Shown here: positions 5,048-54,762 of the stretch, one piece after another | How positions within the stretch are numbered: position 1 is the stretch's first letter | Layout: every line of letters starts with the position of its first letter | Origin: a virus | IMG/VR virus record: IMGVR_UViG_3300028299_000132 | Span: 1 to 64,000 of that record | DNA length: 64,000 bases | Strand: one strand, 5' to 3' | Translations under genes and position numbers: made by a program | The notes under the pieces: model-generated | Database searches by the model: none | Seen by the model: only the letters and a program-made list of their open reading frames with translations | What the model was told of the DNA's origin: nothing

Positions 5048-7225
5048 ATGAAGACAGCGTTGATAACAGGTGTGAGTGGCCAAGATGGGTCATACTTATC
5101 AGAATTTTTATTAGATAAGGGATATAAAGTATATGGGATTGTTCGTAGATCATCAGTTCCTGAAAACCAATCATATAGAGTTAATCATCTTTACGATAAT
5201 CCAAATTTTAAATTAGAATATGGTGATTTAGAGGATATTCCATCGTTAGTTCATGTTATTCAAAGAGTAAAGCCACAAGAAATATATAACCTAGCAGCTC
5301 AATCACATGTTAGAATTTCATTTGATGAACCAATATATACCTGTACCGCGAACGCGATTGGGACATTAAATTTATTGGAATCAATTAGAATGACAGATAC
5401 AACGATTCGTATGTATCAAGCGTCTAGTAGTGAGATGTTTGGAAATAATATAGATAGTGATGGATATCAAAGAGAAACAACACCTATGAATCCAGTTAGT
5501 CCATATGGATGTTCTAAAGTATTTTGTTACAATATAACTAGAAATTATAGAAATTCTTATGGATTATTTTTAACCAACGGTATACTTTTTAACCATGAGA
5601 CGATAGCAGGTTTTATGCCAATGATTTATAAAGAAAAAATAGATGGTGAGATTGATATAAAACCAATATCAGAAATTGTAAAATATCACATATCTGATAA
5701 AATGTTATTTGATGAAAATAATAAGAAATATCAAGGATTTAATGTTGATAAAGATTTATTTGTATGGGATAATAATAACTGGACAAAAGTAAAATACGCA
5801 TCATGTTATATACATGATATTGAAAATGATAATAAAAAACCAAAATTCATAGTGTCAAAAAATGCCGCGTATATGGCGAGTGAAAATCATGTGTGTATAA
5901 TGAATAATGGTGAGAAAGAATTTAAAGATATAGAAATAGGTGATCGTGTAAATATTATAAATTATCCAATTAATGATAACTTGAATTATGTGTTATCCGA
6001 AGAAGAATCTGAACTTATTGGATTTATTGTTGGTGATGGATATTTAAATAAAAATAAGAAATTGAGGTTAATATCTAAAGATCCAAATGATTTAGAAAAG
6101 TATTCTAAGTTATGGATAGAAATGGGTGGTACTGTTCATAAATATCAAGGTGTATCAGGATTCAATAAGAATGAAAAAATATGGTATTTTAATTTAAATG
6201 GTAATAAGGAATGGATTGATAAATATCTTTCGGATATTTATGATGAATATCATAAAAAAAGAATACCAAAAATTATATTAAATTCACCTAAAAACATACA
6301 ATTGAGTTTTTTGAATGGATATAATGATGCAGATGGTTTGAAATCAAATCCCTCTAAGTATAAATTTAGAAATTTTAAAACAAATTCAGCGACATTAGCA
6401 TCTGGTTTAATCTATTTATTAAAAAATACAACTAATCAAGAATATAATATAAATGTAGAATATATTTTTAAATATGGTGAAAATAGAATTTATTATTCAA
6501 TAAATATTTTAAGTGATTCTAATAAAGGCCAAAATCATAGAAATAATATTTTAAAATATGAAAAAGTGATTGAACTTTTAAATAAAGGATATTCACAGAG
6601 AAAAATAGAAAGAGATTATAAAATTAATAGAGGATTTATTAGGAAAATACAAAATGGATATATTCCAAATAATGGACATCATCTATCTATTGAAAATGAT
6701 AAAGTAAAAAAAATAATAGAAATGCATGATTATGATGGGTGGTTTTTTGATTTAGAAACGGAGAGTGGCACATTTCATTGTGGAATAGGACAAGGACATG
6801 TTCATAATAGCCCAAGAAGAGGTATTAATTTTGTTACAAATAAAGTATGTAAGATCGCGGTAGAAATAAAAAATGGTATATCAAATGAGTTGAAACTAGG
6901 CAACCTAGATGCTACTAGGGATTGGGGGCACGCGAAAGATTATGTTCGTGCTATGTGGATGATACTTCAACAGGAAAAACCAGATGATTTTGTTTGTGCG
7001 ACAGGAAAATCACATTCTGTTAAAGATTTAGTAAAATATGTTTTTGGAAAATTAGATTTAGACTGGGAGAAATATGTAACAGTTGATGAAAAATATCTAA
7101 GGCCAGAAGAATTAAAAGATTTAAAAGGTGATTCAACAAAATTAAGAAAACAATTGGATTGGGAACCAACATATACATTTGAAACTATGTTAGATGAAAT
7201 GATAGATTATTGGTTAAAAAAATAA
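5048..7225 (+). CDS. gmd: GDP-mannose 4,6-dehydratase interrupted by an intein
   Basis: Makes GDP-4-keto-6-deoxy-mannose from GDP-mannose, the first step to GDP-L-fucose. N-extein residues 1-184 hold the Rossmann motif GVSGQDGSYL, the QASSSEMFG block and the catalytic Y-x3-K (SPYGCSK). The C-extein resumes at residue 588 with SPRRGINFVTNKV, followed by LGNLDATRDWGHAKDYV, giving a 322-residue spliced enzyme. Residues 185-587 are an intein with a LAGLIDADG endonuclease. The insertion falls exactly between the conserved NHE and SPRRG, a strongly conserved active-site-proximal segment. The partner GDP-L-fucose synthase lies at 58830. Confidence 0.93.
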   Translation: MKTALITGVSGQDGSYLSEFLLDKGYKVYGIVRRSSVPENQSYRVNHLYDNPNFKLEYGDLEDIPSLVHVIQRVKPQEIYNLAAQSHVRISFDEPIYTCTANAIGTLNLLESIRMTDTTIRMYQASSSEMFGNNIDSDGYQRETTPMNPVSPYGCSKVFCYNITRNYRNSYGLFLTNGILFNHETIAGFMPMIYKEKIDGEIDIKPISEIVKYHISDKMLFDENNKKYQGFNVDKDLFVWDNNNWTKVKYASCYIHDIENDNKKPKFIVSKNAAYMASENHVCIMNNGEKEFKDIEIGDRVNIINYPINDNLNYVLSEEESELIGFIVGDGYLNKNKKLRLISKDPNDLEKYSKLWIEMGGTVHKYQGVSGFNKNEKIWYFNLNGNKEWIDKYLSDIYDEYHKKRIPKIILNSPKNIQLSFLNGYNDADGLKSNPSKYKFRNFKTNSATLASGLIYLLKNTTNQEYNINVEYIFKYGENRIYYSINILSDSNKGQNHRNNILKYEKVIELLNKGYSQRKIERDYKINRGFIRKIQNGYIPNNGHHLSIENDKVKKIIEMHDYDGWFFDLETESGTFHCGIGQGHVHNSPRRGINFVTNKVCKIAVEIKNGISNELKLGNLDATRDWGHAKDYVRAMWMILQQEKPDDFVCATGKSHSVKDLVKYVFGKLDLDWEKYVTVDEKYLRPEELKDLKGDSTKLRKQLDWEPTYTFETMLDEMIDYWLKK
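5600..6808 (+). other. LAGLIDADG intein in gmd, with Thr at position 1
   Basis: A 403-residue intein. The C-terminal splice block (FFDLETESGTF... ending HVHN before Ser) and a block-B-like ASENH motif are clear. The two endonuclease motifs are ELIGFIVGDGYL and LSFLNGYNDADGL. The C-extein begins with Ser588, a normal +1 nucleophile. The first intein residue is Thr (ACG at 5600-5602) where Cys or Ser is expected. The block F position that is Cys in class 3 inteins is Asp here, so class 3 does not explain it. Confidence 0.88.
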
Positions 7226-10902: not shown

Positions 10903-11559
10903 TTAATTTTCATTTTTATCTTCAAATACTTTAAATGATTTGATATATTTCATATTCTCATCTAATGTATCATCCTGAGAACTAGTATACCATTCATCGT
11001 CAGGTTTATCAACTCTTTCTAGTAACACTCTGTAAAATAGAACATCATAAACTAGATTTTCAAATTTCATATGAGCGTGTGTATTTTGATTATATACCGC
11101 TTCTAAATCATGAAAAACATGTAATATTTTATTAAAATTCTTTTTATCTAAGAAATGCATTCTTATCTCAACATTAGTCATACCTCTTTTTTTATAATTA
11201 TCAACTATTTTATTCAATCTTTGTTCTAGTTCATAACCAAATGACCCGTGGCCAGTAGCGAAAACAACCGCTTCATTCACTTTATCCATATATGAATATC
11301 TCCTGTCTTTTATTGTATCGTTTATTAATTTTCTAACTAGTTTTTTAAAATCTTTACTATCTTTATCCTTGTTTCTATTTAAATAAATAATTTCTAATTC
11401 TGATAATTCATCTATTATTGTTGATATATTTCTTCCAGTTAGATATTTTTTAACATCATTTAATGAAACTTCTAACTTCTCATATCTATCTATTATTATA
11501 TTGATTTGTTTTTCTATTCTCTTTTCAATATTCTCCATATATTTTAATTTTTTATCCAT
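10903..11559 (-). CDS. Hypothetical helical protein with a tag-like C-terminus, 218 aa
   Basis: Highly charged and helical, unrecognised. A central block VFATGHGSFGYELEQRL is the most domain-like part. The last 16 residues read MKYIKSFKVFEDKNEN, which looks like the shared N-terminal tag but is at the C-terminus and in the same frame. Overlaps the upstream gene by 8 bases. Confidence 0.7.
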   Translation of the reverse strand: MDKKLKYMENIEKRIEKQINIIIDRYEKLEVSLNDVKKYLTGRNISTIIDELSELEIIYLNRNKDKDSKDFKKLVRKLINDTIKDRRYSYMDKVNEAVVFATGHGSFGYELEQRLNKIVDNYKKRGMTNVEIRMHFLDKKNFNKILHVFHDLEAVYNQNTHAHMKFENLVYDVLFYRVLLERVDKPDDEWYTSSQDDTLDENMKYIKSFKVFEDKNEN

Positions 11560-12088
11560 AATACCAATCTAATGGTTTTGTTCTTATATCATCCAAATCA
11601 ATAATCAAACCCTCTTTATCTTTCATCTTCTTTATTGATTCCTTTTCCCTATCCATTATTCTATTTAGCACATCTGTGGCGTTATTAGAATAAAGTTCAT
11701 ATATTTCATTAACCAAGTCTATTATTTCTTGTTCTGTCATTTCGGTCGCTTTTATTAGAAATCTCCTGTATTTTAATATCGTATTCCACCTTTCTGGTAT
11801 GGAATTAACAATAGCTTTTTTTGTTATATCCTTTAGAGTCACTCTTCTATCAAGAACCACTAAGTTTATCCATTTATAAACTGTTGATTTGTCAAATGTA
11901 ACTTGATATAAATCAGATTTATAATCAGATTTCTCTTTACTTTTTATAATAACTTTTTCAACAAGTAATTTTTGAAATTGGTTTTCACCATATCCCATAG
12001 AAATCATATAATAAACATCATCATCATCTAAATAAAATTCATCATCTTCCCAATCAAAATCAGCTTCAAATAATTTTAAATATTTCAT
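11552..12088 (-). CDS. Hypothetical tagged protein, 178 aa
   Basis: Begins MKYLKLFEADFDWEDDEF: the canonical tag of this phage, with LFE followed by Ala as in T4 gp21 cleavage sites, then an acidic spacer (WEDDEFYLDDDDV). The body is unrecognised and helical. Upstream, GAAAATATAAATAAAA holds an exact TATAAATA, the T4 late-promoter consensus, about 20 bases before the ATG. Confidence 0.78.
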   Translation of the reverse strand: MKYLKLFEADFDWEDDEFYLDDDDVYYMISMGYGENQFQKLLVEKVIIKSKEKSDYKSDLYQVTFDKSTVYKWINLVVLDRRVTLKDITKKAIVNSIPERWNTILKYRRFLIKATEMTEQEIIDLVNEIYELYSNNATDVLNRIMDREKESIKKMKDKEGLIIDLDDIRTKPLDWYYG

Positions 12089-12123: not shown

Positions 12124-12492
12124 TTAATATAAATCTTTATCTACCTCAAATTGTGGATATTTTTCAATTAGTTTAGAATATGAACGAATTTTCCACCCCA
12201 GGCATCCATCCCGGCCTGATACATAAATTAAAACATGATTATTAGCTGTAACTAATTTGTTAATTTCATCTCTTGTTAATTTTATAAAAGCTCCTGGTGA
12301 TTCCTCTACTCCATTACATCTATAATTATCAAATAATATTTTTGGAGAACTATTTGTCATAATATAAACATAATTACAATTATCATCATCATAATATTTA
12401 ACAAATACAAAATCTTGTGAATTTTCTTCATCCATCCATTCAAAATCATCAAAGTCAATGTCTATTTCTTCAAATAATTTTATGTATTTCAT
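12124..12492 (-). CDS. Hypothetical tagged protein, 122 aa
   Basis: Begins MKYIKLFEEIDIDFDDFEW: canonical tag with LFE, followed by an acidic Asp/Glu-rich spacer. The rest is small and beta-rich (FVFVKYYDDDNCNYVYIMT), of unknown function. The candidate promoter at 12498-12507 lies only 5 bases before the ATG, implying an almost leaderless message. Confidence 0.78.
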   Translation of the reverse strand: MKYIKLFEEIDIDFDDFEWMDEENSQDFVFVKYYDDDNCNYVYIMTNSSPKILFDNYRCNGVEESPGAFIKLTRDEINKLVTANNHVLIYVSGRDGCLGWKIRSYSKLIEKYPQFEVDKDLY

Positions 12493-12497
12493 ATTTT

Positions 12498-12507
12498 TAT
12501 ATATTAA
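12498..12507 (-). promoter_or_regulatory. Candidate phage promoter TTAATATATA, adjacent to the ATG
   Basis: Exact minus-strand copy ending 5 bases from the ATG at 12492. It overlaps the 3' end of the endonuclease gene (12504). Confidence 0.5.
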
Positions 12508-14090
12508 TTTTTCATTTCAAATTTTAAATTACCAGAATTATATACTCTTAGATATTTTAATTCATCCATTATTTCACATTCTGTCTTATTTTTATCATAT
12601 CCTTCCCTAACTAATTTGTCCTTACGAAAATTGAATCTACTATTTCTATTTAGAGTTCTATCAAAATAATAATAGTTTGGTTGTGTTTTTCCTTTATATT
12701 GAAATCCTAATTTTTTATATAAATCACCTACACTCCACGAACGGTCTGCGTATGTTGTAATTATTTTTGGTGAATAATTTTCAATAAAATATTTAAACAA
12801 TTTTTGTGCACCACCAATAACATTGGTATTCAATTTTGAACAAAATCTTAATAATTCATATTCACCCTCTTCTGTACTCTTTTTCCCAATTGAAACTCTT
12901 CTTTTTCCAAACGTCATTAAACTCACTAACTCTTCGTCATAAAAAAGACCAATTTTCACACTTGAGCCAATAAATCCCTGAATATGATTTTTTTCTAAAA
13001 ATTCACGAATTAATTTATTATCATCAATTCCATGAATTTCACATTTTCTTCCATATATTTTATTTCTAGTTTTTCCTAATTTATTTAATATCATTGATTT
13101 AACAATCTTTTCTTTATTGAACCACTCATCTTCATAGATATGAATTAACTGAATTCCTTTTTCTTCACATAATTCTGTTTTTTCTAGATGATAATTTCTA
13201 TCCTTATATAAATCAGAATGCCAGTATATTCCATTAAATTCAAATGCTAATTTTAAATTAGGGATATAAATATCCAACTCTTTCTTTATTAATGACTGAT
13301 TATTTTCCTCTATATCACCATTATAATTATCTTTAATAAAATTTAATATATTTATTTCTTGTCCAGATTGTTTTATTCCTATTAATGGATTACAAATAGT
13401 ACAATATATTAATTTATTTCTATTTCTTTGGTACAAATTTTTAGCTGTTATATTAAAATAGTGACCATTATCACATCTTATATCTATTGTACGATCATTT
13501 TTAAGAATGAAGTTTTTTATATTATATTTTTCTAATTTTTCTAAAGCGTCTTTCTCCCATCGTTTATAAGTTTTTTTATAAAAATCTATAGTTTTACTAT
13601 AGTGTTCAACACCATATCTTTCCATATTAGTATTCTTTCTTCTATCAATTACTTTTTTATTTTCTAATGGAAATTCAACACCATATCTTTCCAAATTAGT
13701 TTTCTTTATTTTGTTTTTTACATCATCTGATAATAATGAACACTCAAATCCATACTTTTTTAAATTTGTTTTCTTAACTTTTTCTTGTATTTCTTTTACT
13801 TTCATAGGATTATCAACACCATATTTATTTAAATAGGATTGTTTTTTTGAACAGTTATGACATAAAAATCTTCCATATTTAAATAAATTTTTATTGTACT
13901 TATAATATGTAATTACTCTTTCTTTTCCACAATCAGAACATATAGATGTTATTCTTACTACTGAACCATTAGATAAATTTTCTGGTTTTATTTTAATAAT
14001 ATCATTTATTTTAACATCAAATCCATTATTTATATAATGTTTTATGTTTCTTTCTTTTACTATTATTTTTAATTCTTTTTCTTTTATCAT
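12504..14090 (-). CDS. Free-standing homing endonuclease, Hef/Vsr-like
   Basis: 528 residues. N-terminal zinc-ribbon-like Cys pairs (CSDCGK; CHNCSK), then four KYGV-type repeats (KYGVDNPM, KYGFECS, RYGVEFP, RYGVEHY) presumably used for DNA binding. The C-terminal nuclease core has the PD-(D/E)XK/Vsr-like signature ELDIYIPNLKLAFEFNGIYW and then LIHIYEDEW. A close relative of this C-terminal half lies at 34450-36270. It has a GGAG Shine-Dalgarno 4 bases before the ATG, unlike most genes here. Transcribed away from the polymerase fragment that starts at 14194, so it may have caused the break in gene 43. Confidence 0.85.
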   Translation of the reverse strand: MIKEKELKIIVKERNIKHYINNGFDVKINDIIKIKPENLSNGSVVRITSICSDCGKERVITYYKYNKNLFKYGRFLCHNCSKKQSYLNKYGVDNPMKVKEIQEKVKKTNLKKYGFECSLLSDDVKNKIKKTNLERYGVEFPLENKKVIDRRKNTNMERYGVEHYSKTIDFYKKTYKRWEKDALEKLEKYNIKNFILKNDRTIDIRCDNGHYFNITAKNLYQRNRNKLIYCTICNPLIGIKQSGQEINILNFIKDNYNGDIEENNQSLIKKELDIYIPNLKLAFEFNGIYWHSDLYKDRNYHLEKTELCEEKGIQLIHIYEDEWFNKEKIVKSMILNKLGKTRNKIYGRKCEIHGIDDNKLIREFLEKNHIQGFIGSSVKIGLFYDEELVSLMTFGKRRVSIGKKSTEEGEYELLRFCSKLNTNVIGGAQKLFKYFIENYSPKIITTYADRSWSVGDLYKKLGFQYKGKTQPNYYYFDRTLNRNSRFNFRKDKLVREGYDKNKTECEIMDELKYLRVYNSGNLKFEMKN

Positions 14091-14193: not shown

Positions 14194-15309
14194 ATGTTAG
14201 TTCAGGATAATGAAAAATTTAACAGATTGATTATCGGTGGAAGAGAATTACTGATAAAAAAGAAATTTCAAGACTCGTATAAAAATTATAAAACCGCGTT
14301 AGATATAAGTCCTGATAATGAATATGTTAAAGAACAAATAAAAAAAATAGAAAAGTATTTTTATCTAGAAAAAAAATATACAGAGAAAAAAGCGGAGTAT
14401 GATTATAACAAAGCGATGCAACTCGCTCTCAAATTAGTTCTAAACGGAACATATGGAGCGTTCGCGAATAAATACTTTGTCCTGTCTAATGCGAAAATCG
14501 CGAACGCGATTACTTCAATGGGTCGTAATGTTATTCAATATATGTTAGAAAATATAGAAAATTATTTTTATAATGAATGGCATAAAGATGTAGAATCACA
14601 TAAATTACTTGGATTGGAATATTTAGTACAAAATAAAAATGATAATAATTATTATTTTCTTAATAGAAATTACGAATCAATTGACAGACCATTCTCACAA
14701 TTCAATACTGGTGATATGCACAATGATATTCTAAAATCTAGAAATATTCCAATAAGTAGATTAAAGAAAGTTGAAGAATATGAAGTTGGTGATTGGAAAA
14801 TTTTATATGAATATCATATTTTTGATTTTAGTAATGTAAAACCATTAGATAATAATCCAGGTTGGGAAATGATAGATGAAAAAAGAATATCAAATCCAGA
14901 TGAGATATTTAAATCGTATACAGGTGAGAATCATTTATTAATTTATGGTGATACAGATTCAATTTTTTCTGATACACAGATAGATACAGATAAAGGAATA
15001 TATACTATCGAAGAATTATATAATAATAATATTAAAAATGGTTCCGCTGGAGTTACATTAAAAGGTCATGAATCTGTTAATTGTAAAGAAAAGGTTTTAA
15101 ACTGGGATAATGATTTATATTATGCACAAGTTAAAAGGATTATAAGACATAAAGTATCAAAACCAAAATGGAAGTTAAAAACAAAAACAGGTAAAGAAAT
15201 AATAGCAACTAATGATCACTCAATGATTGTTTTTAGGTCTGGTAAAAAACTAGAAGTCAAACCATCTAATATTTTAAGAACTGATAAAATATTGGTTGTA
15301 AAAAAATGA
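14194..15309 (+). CDS. 43: DNA polymerase gp43 middle fragment fused to the N-terminal half of a split intein
   Basis: 371 residues. It contains polymerase B motif B (LALKLVLNGTYGAFANKYF, the K-x3-N-x-x-YG of the fingers) and runs into motif C (YGDTD at 14947-14958), where the intein starts. The exonuclease domain and motif A are absent, so gene 43 must have at least one more piece elsewhere. The first 60 residues instead look like a TPR-type helical hairpin (YKNYKTALDISPDN). From Ser256 the chain is the N-intein and ends in a stop. Trans-splicing with the product of 16429-17409 would restore YGDTDSLYIS. Confidence 0.88.
   Translation: MLVQDNEKFNRLIIGGRELLIKKKFQDSYKNYKTALDISPDNEYVKEQIKKIEKYFYLEKKYTEKKAEYDYNKAMQLALKLVLNGTYGAFANKYFVLSNAKIANAITSMGRNVIQYMLENIENYFYNEWHKDVESHKLLGLEYLVQNKNDNNYYFLNRNYESIDRPFSQFNTGDMHNDILKSRNIPISRLKKVEEYEVGDWKILYEYHIFDFSNVKPLDNNPGWEMIDEKRISNPDEIFKSYTGENHLLIYGDTDSIFSDTQIDTDKGIYTIEELYNNNIKNGSAGVTLKGHESVNCKEKVLNWDNDLYYAQVKRIIRHKVSKPKWKLKTKTGKEIIATNDHSMIVFRSGKKLEVKPSNILRTDKILVVKK
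14959..15306 (+). other. N-terminal half of split intein (116 aa) at the pol motif C site
   Basis: Starts with Ser (SIFSDTQI, block A) directly after YGDTD, contains block B (ATNDHS), and ends KILVVKK before the stop. The length is like that of known natural split-intein N-halves. Confidence 0.9.
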
Positions 15310-15350
15310 TATTTTTAATTTTATATATAGTTTAGGAAGGTGTTGTAATT

Positions 15351-16445
15351 ATGCTCAATAATATTACATTTATAGAAAAATCAAAAAAAATTCATGGAGA
15401 CAAATATGATTATTCTTCAGTTGAATATGAAAAATCAAATATAAAAGTTAAAATAATTTGTAAAAAACATGGTGTATTTTTTCAAACACCTTCTGCTCAT
15501 TTACAAGGAAGGGGGTGTGTTATTTGTGGGGGGAGTAAAAAATATACAAATGATTTATTTATTAAAAAATCAAAAAAAATTCACGGAGACAAATATGATT
15601 ATTCTTTAGTTGATTACAAATCAATGAAAAGTAAAGTAAAAATTATTTGCAGAAAACATAAGATTTTTGAACAAAAACCAGAAAGTCATCTAAATGGTCA
15701 TATCTGTAAAAGGTGTTATAATGAGAATAGAACAATGACAGATGTGAAATTCATAAAAAAATCAAAAGATCTTCACGGAGATAAGTACGATTACTCATTA
15801 GTCGATTATAAAAATTCTAAAACTAAAGTAAAGATAATCTGTAAAGAACATGGTGTTTTCGAACAGGTTCCATCCGCTCATTTAAGTGGACAAGGATGTA
15901 AATATTGTGCAGATATCACTAAAAGATTAACTATAATGGATTTCATAAAAAAATCAAAAGAGATTCACGGAGATAAGTACGATTATTGTAATGTAAAATA
16001 TGTTAATAATTATACAAAAGTTGAAATAATATGTGATAAACATGGTAGTTTTTTCCAATCACCTAATTATCATATGCTAGGGCAGGGGTGCCCAAATTGT
16101 CAAATAAGTCTATTGGAGAATAATATTAAAAAATTATTAGATAAAAATAATATAAATTATGAACAACAAAAAACTTTTGAGGATTGTAAAAATATTAATA
16201 AGTTACCGTTTGATTTTTACTTAATAGATTTTAAAATATGTATAGAATGTAATGGGAAACAACATTATAAACCAGTAAAATATTTTGGTGGAGACAAAAC
16301 ACTAAGTTATATACAAAAAAATGATAAAATTAAAAAAACATTTTGTATAGAAAATAATATAAAATATATTGAAATTAGTTATTTAATGTTAGAAAATGAA
16401 ATAGAAAAAATTATAGATGATGTAAAAGATGGAATATTATTTTGA
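15351..16445 (+). CDS. Free-standing homing endonuclease between the split-intein halves
   Basis: 364 residues. Four tandem repeats of about 65 residues, each with an F-x-x-K-S-K-x-[IL]-H-G-D-K-Y-D-Y motif followed by two Cys pairs that look zinc-binding, then a C-terminal nuclease-like domain (LPFDFYLIDFKICIECNGKQH) of the PD-(D/E)XK/Vsr type. It lies exactly where an intein endonuclease domain would sit but is an independent gene with its own strong Shine-Dalgarno (AGGAAGG at about 15335), which is rare in this window. Its end overlaps the C-intein ORF by 17 bases. Probably spreads the split-intein locus. Confidence 0.87.
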   Translation: MLNNITFIEKSKKIHGDKYDYSSVEYEKSNIKVKIICKKHGVFFQTPSAHLQGRGCVICGGSKKYTNDLFIKKSKKIHGDKYDYSLVDYKSMKSKVKIICRKHKIFEQKPESHLNGHICKRCYNENRTMTDVKFIKKSKDLHGDKYDYSLVDYKNSKTKVKIICKEHGVFEQVPSAHLSGQGCKYCADITKRLTIMDFIKKSKEIHGDKYDYCNVKYVNNYTKVEIICDKHGSFFQSPNYHMLGQGCPNCQISLLENNIKKLLDKNNINYEQQKTFEDCKNINKLPFDFYLIDFKICIECNGKQHYKPVKYFGGDKTLSYIQKNDKIKKTFCIENNIKYIEISYLMLENEIEKIIDDVKDGILF

Positions 16446-16557
16446 TGAAGTAGAAAGTTGTGAATTGATAGGCGGATTTGAAGAAGAATATGTATATGAT
16501 ATAGAGGTGAATGACGATACTCACACATTTATTGCAAATGATATTTTGGTACACAAT
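16429..16557 (+). other. C-terminal half of split intein (43 aa)
   Basis: Blocks F and G are intact: VYDIEV, THTFIAN, VHN, followed by Ser as the +1 residue at 16558-16560. The size fits natural split-intein C-halves. Confidence 0.9.
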
Positions 16558-17409
16558 AGTCTGTATATCAGTTATTTACCAATTATTAAATCCGTTGGAT
16601 TTACTGGAAACGAACTAGAGTTTATATTACATGTTGATAAAGTTTTTGTAAAGAAACTATTTAAAAAGTTTTTGGATGAGTACGCGGAACCATATGATGT
16701 TGAGAATGAACACGATTTTGAATTAGAGACAATCAATAAGTCTGCGATACACTTAGAGAAAAAACATTATATCAATAACGTTGTATGGGAAGATGGTATA
16801 TTTTATGATAGTTTATCATATTTCTTCCCAAAAGGAATTGAGATCGTTCGTTCATCTACACCATCTTTTGTTAGAGGAAAAAATCAACAAGGTGGAATTT
16901 GGGATTTCATAAGATATTTATTTTCCAATCCAGATAATTTAGATATAAGAAATGTTTTGAGATTAGTAAAGGAACAGAGAAAAGCGTTTGAAATGGATGA
17001 TATAGAAAACATCAGTATGAATACATCATGTACGAATTATGATGATAAGGTTGTTAATGATGTAACTAGCATAGAAGTAACAAAAGGTTCACATTTTTCT
17101 ATTAAAGCGGCCGCTTTTCATAATTATTTGTTGAATAAAAATTCTGAATATAAGACAAAATATGATATGATAAAATCTGGTAAGATAAAATATTATTATT
17201 GTAATAGTTCATTAAATAATGTTTTCGCTTATATGAGGAGTTTTCATCCATATGAAATAACTGAAAAAGAAGGAGTTATAATTGATTATGAGGTTCAATT
17301 TGAAAAATGTTATTTAACATTGGTGAATAAATTTATAGAACCACTAGGACTACCTATGATAAACAAAAGATTATCAGTATTAAATTCACTGTTTGATTTC
17401 AAAAAGTAA
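16429..17409 (+). CDS. 43: C-terminal split-intein half fused to the DNA polymerase gp43 C-terminal fragment
   Basis: 326 residues. Residues 1-43 are the C-intein (VYDIEVNDDTHTFIANDILV then HN). The C-extein starts SLYISYLP, completing polymerase motif C, and continues through the KKHY block (as KKRY in T4), RSSTPSFV (as QSSTPKAV in T4) and the thumb domain. It ends LNSLFDFKK, similar to the C-terminal clamp-binding peptide of T4 gp43. No polymerase activity is expected unless this is trans-spliced to the 14194-15309 product and assembled with a missing N-terminal part. Confidence 0.9.
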   Translation: MEYYFDEVESCELIGGFEEEYVYDIEVNDDTHTFIANDILVHNSLYISYLPIIKSVGFTGNELEFILHVDKVFVKKLFKKFLDEYAEPYDVENEHDFELETINKSAIHLEKKHYINNVVWEDGIFYDSLSYFFPKGIEIVRSSTPSFVRGKNQQGGIWDFIRYLFSNPDNLDIRNVLRLVKEQRKAFEMDDIENISMNTSCTNYDDKVVNDVTSIEVTKGSHFSIKAAAFHNYLLNKNSEYKTKYDMIKSGKIKYYYCNSSLNNVFAYMRSFHPYEITEKEGVIIDYEVQFEKCYLTLVNKFIEPLGLPMINKRLSVLNSLFDFKK

Positions 17410-22501: not shown

Positions 22502-23905
22502 ATGAGTAAAATAGTTGACACTTTATTTGATGGTATATTAGTATATGATGACTCTAATCATATACAGAAAGAGGAAGTTGTTGAAGAAACTAAATCAAAG
22601 ACAGATTACAAGAAATACACATCAAAATTTTTCTTTCCAAAAAAGAAAGAAGAAGAAATAAATGAGGATGATGATACTCCGAGATATAAATGTGATACAA
22701 TGTCAACTATGAGTGTATCTGGTTTTATTGATTTATTGGAAGATAATGGATATAAAAGTGGTGTAAAGAAATGGAATGTTTTTATACCAAATGGATATAA
22801 TGATATTGATGAAAAATTAAAAAAAGTAAAAATATCCAATGATGAACAATTTATATTCGCTATTCCAGGGTGTGATAATCTAGTTAGTAAATATAATGTT
22901 TGGAAGAGTTTAGTGGATAAATACGGCCGTGAAACCGCGTCAACCATCGTTCCAGAATCATTTTTACTAGATAATAAAGAAGATGTTGAATTATTAAAAA
23001 AATTTGATAATCAGAAGTTTATCCTAAAGAAAAAGAAACAACGAAAACTTGGATTAAAATTAGTTGATAAAATTGAAGATATTTCAAAACTAAAAAAAGA
23101 AGAATACACAATAGCACAAAAATACTTAAAACCATTTCTAGTTAATGACAGGAAAGTAAATCTTAGAATATACTTACTTATTACATTGAAAAACAATGAA
23201 ATAACTATTTATGTTTCAAAATTTGGTTCCTGCATTTATACAAAACACGAATATGATCATAGTTCGTGTGATTTTGAAAAAAATATCACATCATATAATA
23301 TGGATTTATCAATCTATGAAGAGAATCCATTGACACTAGAACAATTAAAAACTTATCTGAAAAATAATGGGTTCGACCACATTGATATTTTTTCTAAAAT
23401 AGAGAATAAGATAAAATTGTTTATTTGTGCGATAAAAGATCAATTGGGTGATGAAAAATTTAATAAAAATATGTGTTTTCAGGTTTTTGGTATGGATTTT
23501 ATCCTAGATGAGAATTTAGACCCATTTCTATTAGAATGTAATAAAGGTCCAGAGATGAAACCAAAGGTAACACAAATAGAAGATCCAGATGATATTACAG
23601 AGGATATGATAAATCAAATTAATATTCTTAAAGAAACATTAAATAATGGTGATGATGGCATTGACAAAATCAAAAAGATTAAATCTTGTTACATAAAAAT
23701 TTATAAAGGATTTCCAAAAAATGTTTCAAGAACTGTTATAATGGAAAGAATTGAAAAATTCTATAAAGAAGAAAAAGAACTTGATTCATATCCAAATGGT
23801 TATATAACAGGAAATGGAATTAAAGTTCAAAAAGATACATTACATATAATGAATCTCATAGAGAATAATGAAAATAATGGATTTATAAAAGTTGATGTTA
23901 AATGA
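22502..23905 (+). CDS. Tubulin-tyrosine-ligase-like ATP-grasp protein
   Basis: 467 residues. The ATP-grasp part (about 120-370) follows the TTL family: KFILKKKKQRKLGLKLV (ATP lysine region), IAQKYLKPFLVNDRKVNLRIYLLIT (the QKYI..PLL..KFDLR-type block), and the metal-binding block FGMDFILDENLDPFLLECNKGP at about 329-350, with Glu346 and Asn348. TTL-family enzymes ligate an amino acid to a protein C-terminus or side chain using ATP. The N-terminal 110 residues and last 90 are unrelated to TTL that I can see. Ends at a strong bidirectional terminator. No tubulin-like gene is in this window. Confidence 0.8.
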   Translation: MSKIVDTLFDGILVYDDSNHIQKEEVVEETKSKTDYKKYTSKFFFPKKKEEEINEDDDTPRYKCDTMSTMSVSGFIDLLEDNGYKSGVKKWNVFIPNGYNDIDEKLKKVKISNDEQFIFAIPGCDNLVSKYNVWKSLVDKYGRETASTIVPESFLLDNKEDVELLKKFDNQKFILKKKKQRKLGLKLVDKIEDISKLKKEEYTIAQKYLKPFLVNDRKVNLRIYLLITLKNNEITIYVSKFGSCIYTKHEYDHSSCDFEKNITSYNMDLSIYEENPLTLEQLKTYLKNNGFDHIDIFSKIENKIKLFICAIKDQLGDEKFNKNMCFQVFGMDFILDENLDPFLLECNKGPEMKPKVTQIEDPDDITEDMINQINILKETLNNGDDGIDKIKKIKSCYIKIYKGFPKNVSRTVIMERIEKFYKEEKELDSYPNGYITGNGIKVQKDTLHIMNLIENNENNGFIKVDVK

Positions 23906-29456: not shown

Positions 29457-30401
29457 TTATGTGAATTTTATTTTATTTATAACAAAATCAATTAATTCAT
29501 CACTATCTAAATCAATAATATCATTCTCCCATATGGTTATAAGTTTATATCCTTTAGATTCAGCGTATTTCTTTTTTATTCTATCTTTATTCCATATTGT
29601 TACAGCTCTAACTTTTTTGAATGGAAATTCCATAACATCACTTTTTGAATACTTTTTTGGATTCGCGTGCCAAAAATCATCGTTCACTTCTATTAAAATA
29701 TATGTATTATCTAATTTTAAATCAAATTTTTTTATACCTATTTTAAAGTTTTTAGTATATGTTAGGTTCAATTTATCTAGACATGATGAGACTTTTGATT
29801 CAATTGGTTTGTGATTATTCATTATTTCATTTTTTTCCTCATCTATTAGATTATTCCAATGGGTGTAATATACCCCAATCAATTTTCTGAATTCACTTTC
29901 TAATACATCATCATTTTTTAATAAATTCATATCAATATTTTTATTGAAGAATAATTCATTTTTAATCCATTCATAATGTTCTTTATTATCTGATAAATTG
30001 TTTTCAACACCTTTTTTATGAGAGTATTCTTTTTTTCTTTTTATTGATTCTAATTTTGATATGTTATCAACTCCATATTTATCTAAACATGTTTTTTTGT
30101 ATTTTTTTGATGATATTAATTTAGAACTTTTTTTCAAGTCTCTTTTTTTTATCTCAAAATGATCTAATAAGAATAATATATTTCTATAACTTATCCCGTA
30201 TTCTTTTCTTATGTCTGGGAGACTATTCAACTTTATAATATATTCATTATATAAATTATTCTTGTTACTCAAAATAGGAAAATTATAACTTATATAAACC
30301 AATTTTGTATTATAATCATCATTGAGGTTATTTCTATCACATCTATAGATATGATGACCATCATATCTATTTATTTTCTTCTTACAAAAGGGACATCTCA
30401 T
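29457..30401 (-). CDS. Free-standing homing endonuclease, Vsr-like, 314 aa
   Basis: Start chosen at 30401 (MRCPFCKKKINRYDGHHIY), which opens a Cys/His zinc motif and has AATATATAAT just upstream; an in-frame ATG at 30464 is less likely. One KYGVDNIS-type repeat, then a Vsr-like nuclease core (KKFDLKLDNTYILIEVNDDFWH ... KLITIWENDI) with the acidic residues expected of PD-(D/E)XK enzymes. Lies divergently upstream of the tail sheath gene, typical of endonucleases that sit beside conserved phage genes. Confidence 0.8.
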   Translation of the reverse strand: MRCPFCKKKINRYDGHHIYRCDRNNLNDDYNTKLVYISYNFPILSNKNNLYNEYIIKLNSLPDIRKEYGISYRNILFLLDHFEIKKRDLKKSSKLISSKKYKKTCLDKYGVDNISKLESIKRKKEYSHKKGVENNLSDNKEHYEWIKNELFFNKNIDMNLLKNDDVLESEFRKLIGVYYTHWNNLIDEEKNEIMNNHKPIESKVSSCLDKLNLTYTKNFKIGIKKFDLKLDNTYILIEVNDDFWHANPKKYSKSDVMEFPFKKVRAVTIWNKDRIKKKYAESKGYKLITIWENDIIDLDSDELIDFVINKIKFT

Positions 30402-30480
30402 AAAATTATATATTTTACAGAAAAGATGGATTTTTTCTAATTTATCAGTATGAAAATCAGACAAAAAATGAAAAAAAATA

Positions 30481-34449: not shown

Positions 34450-36270
34450 ATGAATGCTATAGAATTAATAAAAGAAAAGAATAATCGTGGTGGAATAATG
34501 TACAATGAAAGATATCTTATGAAAAATTATCTAGATATCTATGAGTTAATAATAAGTTTTTGTAATAAAAATAATTTAGATGATATTTCATTTAATAGAA
34601 AAGTTTATCATTTTGTTAATGACATAAAAGAGAAAAATATAAAGTGTTCTAATCCTTTTTGTGATAATTATGTAGAATTTAAAAATTCTAATATTGGTTA
34701 CAGACGATATTGTTCAAATAAATGCGTTGGTAGTGATCCAAAAATTATAAAAATAAAAGAGAAAAAATCTTTAGAAAAATTTGGAACTCGCACACCAGCT
34801 GAATCAGATATAATTAAGGAAAAAATTATAAAAACTAATTTGGAAAAATATGGAAGGAAAGTTCCGATACCAATAAATGAAATAAATAAAAAGTTACAAG
34901 AAAAATATAATGTTGAAAATATCTCACAAATAGATTATATAAAAAATAAAGTAAAAGAAACAAAATTATTAAAATATGGTGATTCTGGATATAATAATTA
35001 TGAACAAATAAAAAAGACCAATAAAGAAAGATATGGATATGAGTGTTCTTTTCAGAATGAATTAGTTAAAGAAAAAATAAAGAAAAAATTTCTTATAAAG
35101 TATGGTTATGAACATCCTTCTAAGAATGATATAATAAAACAAAAAACGAAGGAGACAATGTTGAAATTATATAATTGTGAAAATCCTTCACAATCAGATT
35201 ATATTCAAAAAATAAAAAGGATTAATAAAATAAATAAAACTTTAAAAAGATATGATTATTTAAATATCATTGATGTTGATTATGATAATAAAATATTTAA
35301 ATTTGAATGTGTTAAAGGACATAAATATGAAATTTCTTTTGAATTGTTTCAAAATAGAAAAAGAATAGATACGGAATTATGTATTAAATGTAATCCAATA
35401 AAGTCAAATAGTGGGCAAGAAATTCAGTTACAAGATTATATAAAGTCTAATTATGATGGAAAAATAAGTTTAAATGATAGAAATATTGTTGGTAAAGAAT
35501 TAGATATTTACATTCCTGGACTTAAACTAGCGTTTGAATTTAATGGTATTTATTGGCATAATGAATTATATAAATCCCCTAATTATCATTTAAAAAAGAC
35601 AGATCTGTGTGAAGAAAAAGGAATACAACTAATACATATATATCAAGATGATTGGATTTATAAAAACGATATTGTTAAATCAATGATATTAAATAAGTTA
35701 GGAAAAACCGAAAATAAAATTTATGCCCGTAAAACAGAAATTCGTGAAATAACTGATAATAAATTAATCAGAGAGTTTTTAGAAAAAAATCATATTCAAG
35801 GATTTATTGGAAGTAAAATAAAATTAGGATTATTTTATAATGAAGAATTAGTTAGTTTAATGATTTTTGGTAATTTAAGAAAAAATTTAGGAACAATTAA
35901 AAATGAGAACCATTATGAATTATTGAGATTTTGTTCCAAATTAAATACAAATGTTGTTGGTGGGGCTAATAAATTATTTAAGTATTTTATTAATGAATAT
36001 AAACCAGAATCTGTAATAAGTTACGCGAATCGTTCATGGACTAAAACTGATGATAATCTATATCTAAATTTAGGATTTAATTTTGTTCATAAAACACAAT
36101 CAAATTATCATTATGTAGTTGATGGAGTCAGAAGAAACAGATTTTTATATAGAAAGGATGTTTTGATTAAAGAAGGATATTCTCCAGATAAAACAGAAAG
36201 AGATATTATGTTTGAGAGAGAAATTTATAGAATTTATGATAGTGGGTGTTTGAAATTTGAATTTATTTAA
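34450..36270 (+). CDS. Free-standing homing endonuclease, Hef/Vsr-like, 606 aa
   Basis: N-terminal Cys motifs (CSNPFC; YCSNKC), then about six KYG repeats (EKFGTRTP, EKYGRKVP, EKYNVENIS, RYGYECS, KYGYEHPS and similar), then a Vsr-like core (ELDIYIPGLKLAFEFNGIYW, LIHIYQDDW) and a C-terminal SYANRSW block. The last 300 residues closely follow the protein at 12504-14090, including LEKNHIQGFIGS. It sits just after the sheath terminator. Expected to cut a phage-lacking allele near gene 18. Confidence 0.85.
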   Translation: MNAIELIKEKNNRGGIMYNERYLMKNYLDIYELIISFCNKNNLDDISFNRKVYHFVNDIKEKNIKCSNPFCDNYVEFKNSNIGYRRYCSNKCVGSDPKIIKIKEKKSLEKFGTRTPAESDIIKEKIIKTNLEKYGRKVPIPINEINKKLQEKYNVENISQIDYIKNKVKETKLLKYGDSGYNNYEQIKKTNKERYGYECSFQNELVKEKIKKKFLIKYGYEHPSKNDIIKQKTKETMLKLYNCENPSQSDYIQKIKRINKINKTLKRYDYLNIIDVDYDNKIFKFECVKGHKYEISFELFQNRKRIDTELCIKCNPIKSNSGQEIQLQDYIKSNYDGKISLNDRNIVGKELDIYIPGLKLAFEFNGIYWHNELYKSPNYHLKKTDLCEEKGIQLIHIYQDDWIYKNDIVKSMILNKLGKTENKIYARKTEIREITDNKLIREFLEKNHIQGFIGSKIKLGLFYNEELVSLMIFGNLRKNLGTIKNENHYELLRFCSKLNTNVVGGANKLFKYFINEYKPESVISYANRSWTKTDDNLYLNLGFNFVHKTQSNYHYVVDGVRRNRFLYRKDVLIKEGYSPDKTERDIMFEREIYRIYDSGCLKFEFI

Positions 36271-39395: not shown

Positions 39396-39872
39396 TTATC
39401 CTCTTGTATTTTGTATAATAAGTTTTATCATATCTAGTCTAATATCATCTGTACACCAGTATCCTAACTCTTCATTATAGTCCAATTCTATAAAGTATGA
39501 GGTAATCATATCATATTCCTGAAATGTGATTTTTATTATCTCTCCACTAGGAATAAACAACAAATCTATAAAATCATCATTTTTCATTTTCTTTTTCATA
39601 TTTTTACCATTACGATAAATTGACTCAAATATACTATTATTTTCCCTATATTTCAATTCTTTTGTGAATATTTCTATGAGATTTTTCCCACGATTCTTAC
39701 CATATACTTTAATATGTTTTTGAACATACGGAATGAGATTATTTAACTGACTATTTGTTATATTTTTTAATTTTATTCTTCTACCTTCTTTGGTTGACCA
39801 AACAAAATCATTTCTCAATTTAAGGAATTTATCATCAAAATCTATATCTTCAAATAATTTTAAATATTTCAT
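39396..39872 (-). CDS. Tagged protein with PSGE motif, 158 aa
   Basis: Begins MKYLKLFEDIDFDDKFL (canonical tag with LFE). The C-terminal half contains LLFIPSGEIIKITFQEYDMI followed by a Tyr/acidic segment and a last helix, the pattern shared by the small PSGE proteins at 41514-42914. It therefore joins the two unusual features of this region in one protein. Function unknown. Confidence 0.76.
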   Translation of the reverse strand: MKYLKLFEDIDFDDKFLKLRNDFVWSTKEGRRIKLKNITNSQLNNLIPYVQKHIKVYGKNRGKNLIEIFTKELKYRENNSIFESIYRNGKNMKKKMKNDDFIDLLFIPSGEIIKITFQEYDMITSYFIELDYNEELGYWCTDDIRLDMIKLIIQNTRG

Positions 39873-39876
39873 ATTC

Positions 39877-40842
39877 TTATTTTACAATTTTTAAAAATAG
39901 ATCAAATTTTATTTCCTTTCTACCATCTTTAGTATAACTTCCCGAACTTGGTGAATAGTATCCACCAATAGTATAATTATAATTAATATCCCAATTCCCC
40001 CATTTTATTGATTGTAATACCCTCTTATTTTTTTCTGTTACTTTAATACACCAATTTTGTGGTACTTTTGGTTTTGGTTCTTCTTCTTCATATTCCCAAT
40101 CATTTTCATCAAAATCTATACTTTCCTTTATATTACCAATTACTGTAATTCTATCATCTCCTATTAATGATATATTATCCCCACTATTGACAACTTTACA
40201 GAATTCTATTCTAGGATAATCGTAGTTATTGTATTCTGGTACTAATGATGGCACCTTAAATTCTTTGACAGAAATCTTTCTCCATGATTTATATATCTTC
40301 TCCTCTTTTTTATATTCATATACATGTATTTTTTTACCACTTATATTATCATTTAACCAGTTTATAAATTTGTGAATATCTTTACCTACGTGTTCATATA
40401 ATTCATATAATATAAATTCCTCTTTATCAAATGGTTCCTCATCTTCATAATCCCAATCATCAAAGTCAATTGATTCAGTTATTACTTTTTGAAAATAATC
40501 ATCCATTTTTTCATCATCTTCAACAAAAAATTTCCATCCAGAGTGAGGTAGTTCTATTTTTCCCCTAAAAAAATACACTGTAACCTTCTGATGTGGATGA
40601 TTCTTCCTAGTTCTATTAGAAGTATAGGCATCAGTATAGACACCAGTTTTATCTTTTCTTATTCTTTCAATCTTTAATTCTTCACCAACATCAAATTCTG
40701 ACGCGAATCTAAATACGGGGTGTTCATAAGACTTTATACATCTGACTATATCACCAGCTTTAAACTTATCTCCAATTGTTTCTGGTTCATTTTCCCAATC
40801 AAAATCAAAATCTATTTCTTCGTATAATTTAATATATTTCAT
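39877..40842 (-). CDS. Tagged hypothetical protein, 321 aa
   Basis: Begins MKYIKLYEEIDFDFDWE (LYE site). Two further ESIDFD-type acidic segments occur internally (near residues 127 and 240), as if tag-like peptides or linkers were repeated. The first domain (GDKFKAGDIVRCIKSYEH ... GEELKIERIRKDKTG) looks SH3-like. Stops 4 bases before the downstream tagged gene. Unrecognised family. Confidence 0.73.
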   Translation of the reverse strand: MKYIKLYEEIDFDFDWENEPETIGDKFKAGDIVRCIKSYEHPVFRFASEFDVGEELKIERIRKDKTGVYTDAYTSNRTRKNHPHQKVTVYFFRGKIELPHSGWKFFVEDDEKMDDYFQKVITESIDFDDWDYEDEEPFDKEEFILYELYEHVGKDIHKFINWLNDNISGKKIHVYEYKKEEKIYKSWRKISVKEFKVPSLVPEYNNYDYPRIEFCKVVNSGDNISLIGDDRITVIGNIKESIDFDENDWEYEEEEPKPKVPQNWCIKVTEKNKRVLQSIKWGNWDINYNYTIGGYYSPSSGSYTKDGRKEIKFDLFLKIVK

Positions 40843-42950: not shown

Positions 42951-44315
42951 TCAAAGAGTTCTTATTTGATGAACCATCAAAACTTTTTCATTCATAACTC
43001 TTTGAATTTTTTTTGGTTCTACTGGTCTATCCCACATCATTGATATACGCCATCTGACACCAGATAAATCATCTATTATTTTATTTTTGAATAAATCTAT
43101 CCATTTTAAACCATTTAAATTACCTGATCCTTCAAAAACTCCCATTATATTTGAAAGATTTCCGATACCTGGATGACCACCAACTTTCGTAAATATTTTT
43201 CTGTAATGAAATTCTTGTCTAAAGAAATCTAAAACATGATGTGTATAATCACCAAGATCTTCAACAATATAACCATCTTTCAATCTAGGTAATTCTTCTC
43301 TTTGGATATTAGCTATCCCATTTGTATCCGCTACTTGTAAAGATGGTCCAAATTGTAACATAATAAAATCAACTCTGTGCCCTCTTAAACCTTCTGTGTT
43401 TCTTAAATCTTGATTAATTATCGCTCTCGCTCTTAACGCATTTGCCCAAGTACCAGCTGGTACATATGCCATTCTACCAATTATTTGATATCCATCTTTT
43501 TTAATAACTCCACCACCCCACCATTTATCGTAAAATTCTTTTTGATCATTATATACAACTTTTTGTTCCTTTCCTCTAGTTCTTTCTGACATTATTCTAA
43601 TTCTTTCTCTACCATCTGTTATAAAATCTTTTTCTACACCTCTTCTGTCAACATTATTCTCAGGATATAACATTTTGAAATTAAGGAATATATTTATTAT
43701 AGATAATGATGCGTTGTGAGCTACCTCTATTAGAGTTCTATAATCACCTCTTTTTATTAATTGATTAAACGCGCCCGCGAAAAATAGTTTTGGTTTATCA
43801 AATTGTCTTATATCATTTAAATTAAAATTCAAAATAGTTTCTATATCAACATCATACATTTGATATTTCGCACCATCTACCATATCAATAACATCCAATA
43901 TTACAGAATCAGTTGGTAATCCTAATTGTAAACATATTCCTTCGTACGCACTGCTTGTTTTTGTTTTTATTGAATTTAGACTCTGTTTTTCTATATCTCC
44001 ACCCTTTTCAACAAAAGACCCATGATGGTCAATATAAACATCAACTTCATCATTATCTTCTGCATAATCAAGAGCTATGTTTATATAACGATCATCTAAT
44101 TGTATGTTACGCCACCCTTCCTGGTAATTTACCACACCATATCCAACAATTTCGAATCCATGATTTCGTAGATAATCTCTCATAACAATTGCACTCATAA
44201 TTCCATCTAGGTCATCGTGCATGAATATCATACATTGTTTCCCTACTTTACCTTTTTCTATCCAATATTCTTCTGAATTTGTTATTGTAGGAGCTCCTTC
44301 AAATAGTTTTCTCAT
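42951..44315 (-). CDS. DHH-family phosphoesterase with tag-like N-terminus
   Basis: 454 residues. HDDLDG (33-38) and YIDHHGS (94-100) are motifs I and III of the DHH family (RecJ/NrnA-like manganese phosphoesterases); the intact metal ligands suggest an active nuclease or phosphodiesterase, of which oligonucleotide or cyclic-dinucleotide hydrolysis are known members. The C-terminal region (VGGHPGIGNLSNIMG) may be the DHHA1-like part. The start MRKLFEGAPT has LFE followed by Gly, as a short version of the tag. The homing endonuclease gene overlaps its first codons. Confidence 0.83.
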   Translation of the reverse strand: MRKLFEGAPTITNSEEYWIEKGKVGKQCMIFMHDDLDGIMSAIVMRDYLRNHGFEIVGYGVVNYQEGWRNIQLDDRYINIALDYAEDNDEVDVYIDHHGSFVEKGGDIEKQSLNSIKTKTSSAYEGICLQLGLPTDSVILDVIDMVDGAKYQMYDVDIETILNFNLNDIRQFDKPKLFFAGAFNQLIKRGDYRTLIEVAHNASLSIINIFLNFKMLYPENNVDRRGVEKDFITDGRERIRIMSERTRGKEQKVVYNDQKEFYDKWWGGGVIKKDGYQIIGRMAYVPAGTWANALRARAIINQDLRNTEGLRGHRVDFIMLQFGPSLQVADTNGIANIQREELPRLKDGYIVEDLGDYTHHVLDFFRQEFHYRKIFTKVGGHPGIGNLSNIMGVFEGSGNLNGLKWIDLFKNKIIDDLSGVRWRISMMWDRPVEPKKIQRVMNEKVLMVHQIRTL

Positions 44316-45129
44316 TTATATTTATTTTATTTTTTAATTCATTTTCAAAATATTTATCATCTTTTATATATTTACTACAATTTAAATGTCTTCTCGTGAT
44401 ACATAAATTATTAATGTTTCCAATTGTTATAACGTCTATATTATCCATATATCCTTGATATATGGATGTTTTATGATCTATAGTTGGATAATTTTTATCA
44501 AATTTGGTATTATTTTTAATATATTTGTTGTCATAATAATCAAACCCATCCCATTTTTCAAATAATTCTTTTTTGTTTTTTCTTGTTTCTCTATTTACAA
44601 GTCTTTTATATATTTCAAATTCTTTTAATTCATCATCTGGTATTTGATTTCCATTTTTTATTCTACTTATTCTTGATTTTTCTACTATTCTCTCAGATTT
44701 TCTAGGGTATTCAACCCCATGATTTTTGATCATTGTTTTTTTACACATATCTTTTATTTTTTCGGATTGGAATACATTCTCAACCCCCCAGTTTTTAATA
44801 TTAGTTTTTATTTTTTTATCCTTTACATATTCTAACTGAGATATGTTCTCAACACCAAATTCTTTAATAAGTTTTTTCTTCATGTATTTTTTAGTACATA
44901 TCGGACACAAGTATCCATCAATAATTCTTTGATTATAGTGGTCATATCTAATAAATCGTGTATAGTCACATTTATCACATTTTACCTTTATATCAATATG
45001 TGAACCTTTTGTTAAATGATCAATTGGGATTTTAATGATATCATTATATTTGATGTTATATCCCAATTCTCTATAATGATTAATATTATGATTTATTATT
45101 TTAGCATATACTTCCTTTGTAATTATCAT
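44299..45129 (-). CDS. HNH-type homing endonuclease, 276 aa
   Basis: A zinc ribbon (KCDKCDY ... LCPICTKK), then three KxxGVEN-type repeats (FGVENIS, WGVENVF, HGVEYPR) and a C-terminal HNH-like nuclease (YPTIDHKTSIYQGY, with GNINNLCITRRHLN). It shares the repeat architecture of the Vsr-like proteins but has a different catalytic domain. The stop overlaps the DHH gene start by 17 bases, as if it had inserted immediately upstream. GATAAATAGGAAA upstream may hold its promoter or ribosome site. Confidence 0.82.
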   Translation of the reverse strand: MIITKEVYAKIINHNINHYRELGYNIKYNDIIKIPIDHLTKGSHIDIKVKCDKCDYTRFIRYDHYNQRIIDGYLCPICTKKYMKKKLIKEFGVENISQLEYVKDKKIKTNIKNWGVENVFQSEKIKDMCKKTMIKNHGVEYPRKSERIVEKSRISRIKNGNQIPDDELKEFEIYKRLVNRETRKNKKELFEKWDGFDYYDNKYIKNNTKFDKNYPTIDHKTSIYQGYMDNIDVITIGNINNLCITRRHLNCSKYIKDDKYFENELKNKININEKTI

Positions 45130-54651: not shown

Positions 54652-54762
54652 ATAATTATTCAAAACTAATTTCTTTTGTATAACTATATATAATTAAAAA
54701 ATAATGAATTTTTTCCATCGTGGTTTTATTGGTGTGGTCTTTATAAAAAAAATTAAATAAAA

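What the first reader, a model, noticed from the sequence alone, without database searches (positions are those of the whole stretch)
14194..17409. DNA polymerase gene fractured at motif C by a split intein with a separate endonuclease gene in between
N-extein ends YGDTD, the N-intein (116 aa) ends in a stop, a free-standing endonuclease gene follows, then a C-intein (43 aa) ends HN before SLYIS. The same kind of fractured gene arrangement, with split inteins and interposed endonucleases, is known from environmental phage sequences for other replication genes. Here it is at the pol-c site, the catalytic Asp motif, so polymerase activity depends on trans-splicing.
Basis: partly seen in the sequence, partly recalled or inferred. 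Interest (0 to 1): 0.8.

Follow-up and report, generated by a model that had tools for sequence, protein, structure and literature searches.

The report
Phage DNA polymerase rejoined by split intein
In this uncultured large phage the DNA polymerase gene is broken at its active site by a two-part self-splicing protein element with a DNA-cutting gene between the halves; the same arrangement is already known in cultured phages, so this is a well-supported new example, not a new kind of system.

Summary
ORF 14194-15309 carries a 255-aa family-B polymerase segment ending YGDTD plus a 116-aa N-intein and a stop. ORF 15351-16445 is a free-standing Vsr-like endonuclease. ORF 16429-17409 is a 43-aa C-intein ending VHN, then SLYIS and 283 aa of polymerase. 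All Ser1-intein catalytic residues are present. More than 20 other records, including cultured phages, have the same break, so the stop is not a sequencing error.

(1) The 'N-extein' is only the middle of the polymerase. Exonuclease and motif A are absent from the 98-kb contig and are a separate gene in related phages: a second, intein-less gp43A/gp43B-like break. (2) The arrangement is known for polB itself: Aeromonas phage Aes123 (gp43A / gp43B1+N-intein / VSR / gp43B2+C-intein; its intein trans-splices, PDB 9HTH), Tenacibaculum PTm1, Pseudomonas MIJ3.

What it adds is comparative: the same site occurs empty, with a continuous intein, split without endonuclease, and split with different endonucleases; in Campylobacter phages three of these states occur at 93-94% DNA identity. 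New member of a known kind; splicing here is inferred.

The parts
14194..14958 (+). Middle polymerase piece (N-extein, 255 aa, ends YGDTD): fingers part, motif B, first half of motif C; TPR-like N-terminal extension about residues 16-43
   Evidence: Pfam DNA_pol_B E 6e-12; TPR weak E 0.02; PHROG polymerase families; 50% identical to the intein-free LR756501 gene
14431..14460 (+). Motif B (KLVLNGTYGA)
   Evidence: Read from the sequence; lies inside the DNA_pol_B match 69-126
14944..14958 (+). Motif C YGDTD; intein inserted between the last D and the following S
   Evidence: Intein-free relatives read DTDS uninterrupted
14959..15306 (+). N-intein, 116 aa: Ser1, NX motif (IIRHKV), N3 motif (TNDH); stop 15307-15309
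   Evidence: Intein_splicing E 7e-9; motifs present in the aligned loci; best PDB match 9HTH, the Aes123 PolB1 split intein, E 8e-15
15320..15340 (+). 21-nt leader TTTATATATAGTTTAGGAAGG ahead of the endonuclease gene, shared with another locus that has the same endonuclease type at this site
   Evidence: One match in the window, 0.02 expected; 19 of its bases exact in only one fetched locus, L020 (aligned by eye)
15351..16445 (+). Free-standing endonuclease gene, 364 aa: four tandem zinc-finger-like modules plus a C-terminal Vsr-like nuclease domain (about residues 254-359)
   Evidence: phrog_559 E 7e-102; DUF4379 E 4e-8; AF2 model pLDDT 93; top Foldseek match 1VSR, probability 1.00 but E 0.048; invariant E256, D288, E299, H305, K328 in 38 aligned proteins
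16429..16557 (+). C-intein, 43 aa, ends ..HTFIANDILVHN; its start codon overlaps the endonuclease gene by 17 nt
   Evidence: Intein_splicing E 9e-6; 74-88% identical to C-inteins of PTm1 and many related contigs
16558..17406 (+). C-terminal polymerase piece (C-extein, 283 aa, starts SLYIS with Ser+1)
   Evidence: PHROG DNA polymerase E 5e-26; 59% identical to LR756501

Best explanation
This is a fractured family-B (gp43-type) DNA polymerase gene of a large tailed phage. The middle piece fused to an N-intein and the C-terminal piece fused to a C-intein are made as two proteins. The intein halves associate, Ser1 and Ser+1 carry out oxyester splicing, and the pieces are joined at motif C (YGDTD/SLYIS). 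The 538-aa product then associates with a separate exonuclease/motif A subunit (gp43A-like) encoded outside this contig. The gene between the halves encodes a Vsr-like homing endonuclease that most likely cuts intein-free polB alleles near motif C and so spreads the intein with itself. Shown here: anatomy, intact catalytic residues, empty sites, mobility pattern. Inferred: splicing, cutting specificity, assembly with the gp43A-like subunit.
For: Coordinates and families. Ser1, TNDH, RH, VHN and Ser+1 all present. Best PDB match is the Aes123 PolB1 split intein, whose native form trans-splices at about 30% efficiency (PMC11923092). Same three-part layout in Aes123 and PTm1; MIJ3 has the split intein and endonuclease with an unbroken N-part. 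Empty sites at 82% DNA identity (L031 vs L015) and 94% (CPt10 vs CC_R7). Intein identity to most relatives is 61-75% where the polymerase pieces are 30-66% identical (exceptions MIJ3 and Lak phages, 37-44%). On the polymerase tree, presence/absence of the intein needs 9 changes, at least 7 forced by well-supported branches. The exonuclease piece is a separate gene in the huge phages tested and PTm1 and is absent from all 98,091 bases here.
Against: No expression, splicing or cleavage data exist for this phage. The endonuclease resembles Vsr only weakly in structure (Foldseek E 0.048) and no solved homing endonuclease matched by sequence. Greater conservation of the intein than of the polymerase could partly reflect selection on splicing. 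The contig is a fragment, so the gp43A-like piece is not seen.
Confidence: 0.85

Rival explanations
1. The intein halves bind but do not splice; the two polymerase pieces work as a non-covalent complex, as gp43A and gp43B do.
For: Phage 25 gp43A/gp43B co-purify and have polymerase activity without splicing (PMC2988022); the upstream break in this enzyme has no intein.
Against: Splicing residues are kept in the split relatives, which would not be needed for mere association; the break lies beside the catalytic Asp; the nearest characterised inteins splice.
Confidence: 0.1
2. The break is a sequencing or assembly artefact, or a decayed polymerase copy.
For: The stop follows a run of seven A, a usual place for indel errors.
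Against: The same break at the same place occurs in many independent contigs and in cultured phages; the 1.1-kb insert holds a full endonuclease gene; all three ORFs are open with conserved motifs.
Confidence: 0.02
3. The endonuclease is a passenger that does not mobilise the intein; the intein persists or moves by ordinary recombination.
For: Different endonuclease types sit in nearly the same intein (L019 vs L020), some split inteins have none (L030, L032, L033, Aes516), and this endonuclease family occurs widely elsewhere in phage contigs.
Against: Endonuclease genes recur exactly between the intein halves in over 20 loci; a stretch of leader is shared by window and L020; the intein is patchily present across polymerase lineages.
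Confidence: 0.25

Closest known systems
Aeromonas phage Aes123/Aes508 gene 43 (GenBank JN377899, JN377894; PolB1 split intein, PDB 9HTH)
   Same: gp43A / gp43B1+N-intein / VSR endonuclease / gp43B2+C-intein in that order; DTD/S site; Ser1/Ser+1; intein halves of similar size
   Different: Aeromonas T4-like phages, distant polymerase (identity not computed); endonuclease of a different sequence type; gp43A adjacent instead of out of sight
Tenacibaculum phage PTm1/PTm5 split DNA polymerase (AP019524, AP019525)
   Same: Separate N-part, P2+N-intein, VSR endonuclease, C-intein+P3; intein 61% identical overall
   Different: Polymerase pieces only 31-33% identical; different endonuclease
Pseudomonas phage MIJ3/PA5oct split PolB intein (PMC6892783)
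   Same: Split intein at the same motif with an endonuclease gene between
   Different: N-part unbroken (804 aa with exonuclease); intein only 37% identical; 560-aa endonuclease
LCGC14 and CP21 PolB split inteins (PMC12707363)
   Same: Ser1/Ser+1 typically split PolB inteins of 115-120 plus 39-42 aa, shown to trans-splice (CP21 partially)
   Different: Other hosts; LCGC14 sequence not compared directly here
Fractured genes of Dassa et al. 2009 (paper not held; from memory and as cited in the MIJ3 paper)
   Same: DNA-synthesis enzyme gene split by an intein with a free-standing, often Vsr-like endonuclease between
   Different: A further locus of that type, from an uncultured large phage

Membership tests
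Split intein, class 1 Ser1/Ser+1 (PolB type) | Ser1, N3 T-x-x-H, NX [R/K]H, C-terminal HN, Ser+1 | tested here: met
   SIFSDT.., IIRHKV, TNDH, ILVHN/SLY; motif NX as defined in PMC10189870
Split intein, class 1 Ser1/Ser+1 (PolB type) | Halves on separate ORFs, break at the homing-endonuclease insertion site (about 100-120 + 35-45 aa) | tested here: met
   116 + 43 aa with stops between; usual sizes from PMC12707363
Split intein, class 1 Ser1/Ser+1 (PolB type) | Protein trans-splicing activity | not testable with these tools
   Shown for Aes123, LCGC14 and CP21 inteins in the literature only
Fractured gene (Dassa 2009) | Conserved enzyme gene broken by a split intein with a free-standing endonuclease gene in between | tested here: met
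   the definition is from memory because the paper is not held
gp43-type family B DNA polymerase | Motif B, motif C and C-terminal part homologous to phage PolB | tested here: met
gp43-type family B DNA polymerase | 3'-5' exonuclease domain and motif A | tested here: inconclusive
   Absent from these ORFs and from the 98-kb record; a separate gene in relatives. The record is a fragment, so this shows absence from the contig, not from the phage
Vsr-like (EDxHD) homing endonuclease | Vsr-type nuclease fold | tested here: inconclusive
   Top Foldseek match 1VSR, probability 1.00, TMt 0.54, but E 0.048; no PDB sequence match
Vsr-like (EDxHD) homing endonuclease | Site-specific cutting of the intein-free allele | not testable with these tools
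   No assay possible

The most novel reading that the evidence does not exclude
At this one polymerase site inteins are repeatedly broken (or re-fused) as endonuclease genes of different types enter and leave, so split inteins arise, and may be reversed, on short time scales; the window is one state of that cycle. Supporting pairs: Campylobacter phages empty (CPt10 and others) / continuous (CC_R7) / split+insert (CP21, F379, CJLB-13) at 93-94% DNA identity; L028 continuous vs L029 split, 78-79%; L019 vs L020 endonuclease swap, 80-83%; Aes516 vs Aes123 endonuclease absent/present, 97%. The direction of each change is not shown.
Probability: 0.45. Interest if true: 0.6.

Novelty: new member of a known kind. 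Interest (0 to 1): 0.36.

Why it matters
The locus itself repeats a published design. Its value is as one of about 25 relatives that show the same insertion site empty, with a continuous intein, with a bare split intein, and with a split intein holding different endonucleases. Where split inteins come from is an open question; closely related phages in different states, some of them cultured, make it testable. Natural Ser1/Ser+1 split inteins that need no essential cysteine are also wanted as protein-ligation tools, and these loci add many candidates.

Tried and rejected
Sequencing error at the stop: rejected, same break in independent contigs and isolates. Missing polymerase N-part inside the record: a PF03104 search of the whole record and tblastn with eight relatives' exonuclease proteins found nothing. 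PDB sequence search for the endonuclease, single sequence and profile: no homologue. A genome-wide control element: the 21-nt leader occurs once in the window; a scan of viral contigs with a 15-mer of it gave 95 hits that I did not analyse. I made no tree of the endonucleases; the labels HEG-A/B/C were assigned by eye and are provisional.

Full report
What is there. The window is bases 1-64000 of a 98,091-base IMG/VR virus record. ORF 14194-15309 (371 aa) carries 255 aa of family-B DNA polymerase ending YGDTD, then 116 aa of intein starting SIFSDT and a TGA stop. ORF 15351-16445 (364 aa) is an endonuclease gene. ORF 16429-17409 (326 aa) starts with 43 aa of intein ending VHN, then SLYIS and 283 aa of polymerase. 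Pfam finds DNA_pol_B (E 6e-12) and Intein_splicing (7e-9, 9e-6); PHROGs find DNA polymerase in the C-part (5e-26) and HNH endonuclease in the middle ORF (7e-102).

The break is real. Intein-free relatives read through the site: LR756501 YGDTDSYYLS, L031 YGDTDSLYIS. In split relatives the N-intein ends at the same point with a stop, and the C-intein starts in any of the three frames. Cultured phages show the same.

The intein. Ser1, the NX motif (IIRHKV), N3 (TNDH), the terminal HN and Ser+1 are present. NX is the histidine described as specific to Ser1 inteins (PMC10189870). The best PDB match of the joined halves is 9HTH, E 8e-15, the Aes123 PolB1 split intein from Aeromonas phages, whose native form splices at about 30% efficiency (PMC11923092). 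LCGC14, and partially CP21, also PolB split inteins, splice in vitro (PMC12707363).

The polymerase has another break. The first piece starts just before motif B and lacks exonuclease and motif A. No PF03104 match exists in the whole record, and eight exonuclease proteins from relatives give no significant tblastn match. In seven huge-phage records and PTm1 the exonuclease piece is a separate ORF of about 480-515 aa, from about 2 kb (PTm1) or 11 kb (LR756500) to about 100 kb or more away. T4-like phages with gp43A/gp43B are known, and phage 25's pair is active (PMC2988022). I infer the same here: one subunit in trans, two pieces spliced.

The endonuclease. The AlphaFold model (mean pLDDT 93, pTM 0.47, so domain placement is uncertain) shows four repeated small modules and a C-terminal domain. 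Foldseek ranks the Vsr endonuclease 1VSR first, probability 1.00, E 0.048. Thirty-eight aligned proteins keep E256, D288, E299, H305, K328. Vsr-like is therefore likely, not proven. A 19-base part of the leader 15320-15340 is exact in L020, which has the same endonuclease type at the same site.

Relatives. Viral-contig and phage searches gave the site in several states: empty (L003, L008-L010, L012, L031, L039-L047), continuous intein (L028, L034, L035, CC_R7), split without endonuclease (L030, L032, L033, Aes516), split with endonuclease (window, L004-L007, L011, L013-L027, L029, L036, Aes123, CP21, VPALA). Some of these contigs are near-identical or the same sequence, so independent loci are fewer than labels. 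Pairwise, L031 (empty) and L015 (split) share 82% DNA on both flanks; L028 (continuous) and L029 (split) 78-79%; L019 and L020 80-83% with different endonucleases; Aes516 and Aes123 97% next to the insert. In Campylobacter phages CC_R7 has a continuous 153-aa intein, F379, CJLB-13 and CP21 are split with an insert of about 1 kb, and CPt10 lacks exactly 459 bases, all 93-94% identical at the site. CP21's polymerase annotation is fragmented and F379's insert is annotated as two short ORFs, so those endonucleases may be decayed.

Mobility. Intein identity to the window is 61-75% in most relatives, where the polymerase pieces are 30-66% identical; MIJ3 and the Lak phages are more distant. On the polymerase tree intein presence needs 9 changes, at least 7 forced by well-supported branches. 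The window groups with empty relatives and L013 (99/97). The intein tree is poorly resolved, only 5 of 22 branches well supported, so no formal incongruence test is claimed.

Known or new. Aes123 (JN377899) has gp43A, gp43B1 with N-intein, a VSR endonuclease, and gp43B2 with C-intein. PTm1 is annotated in GenBank as an intein-containing split DNA polymerase precursor with a VSR endonuclease. MIJ3 was published with a split PolB intein (PMC6892783). The window is a new member of this kind. Trans-splicing, homing and three-piece assembly in this phage remain inferences.

Noticed in passing
window 5048-7225 (+): GDP-mannose 4,6-dehydratase gene interrupted in frame by a LAGLIDADG-type intein of about 403 aa between NGILFNHE and SPRRG; its apparent first residue is Thr. 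tblastn against phages found only weak matches to inteins in helicases.
   Followed up: partly
window 11552-12088, 12124-12492, 39396-39872, 39877-40842, 59832-60887 (all -): At least five different proteins begin with nearly the same tag, MKYIKLFEEIDFDD-like, recalling the capsid-targeting sequences of T4 internal proteins (from memory, untested).
   Followed up: no
window 14239-14322; L003, L013, L039, L040: The middle polymerase piece in the window's clade has a TPR-like N-terminal extension (Pfam E 0.02 in the window) not seen in the other relatives; it might dock the separate exonuclease piece.
   Followed up: no
L128, L129, L310, L311 (Campylobacter phages CP21, CC_R7, CPt10, F379): Empty, continuous-intein and split-intein-plus-insert polB alleles in phages 93-94% identical in DNA at the site.
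   Followed up: partly
window 12504-14090 (-), 29457-30464 (-), 34450-36270 (+), 44299-45129 (-), 53461-54663 (-): Four further homing-endonuclease-like genes, one right beside the start of the polymerase piece, and a TnpB-like gene (the last by eye).
   Followed up: no
window 22502-23905 (+): Tubulin-tyrosine-ligase family protein (Pfam TTL E 4e-25) in a phage.
   Followed up: no
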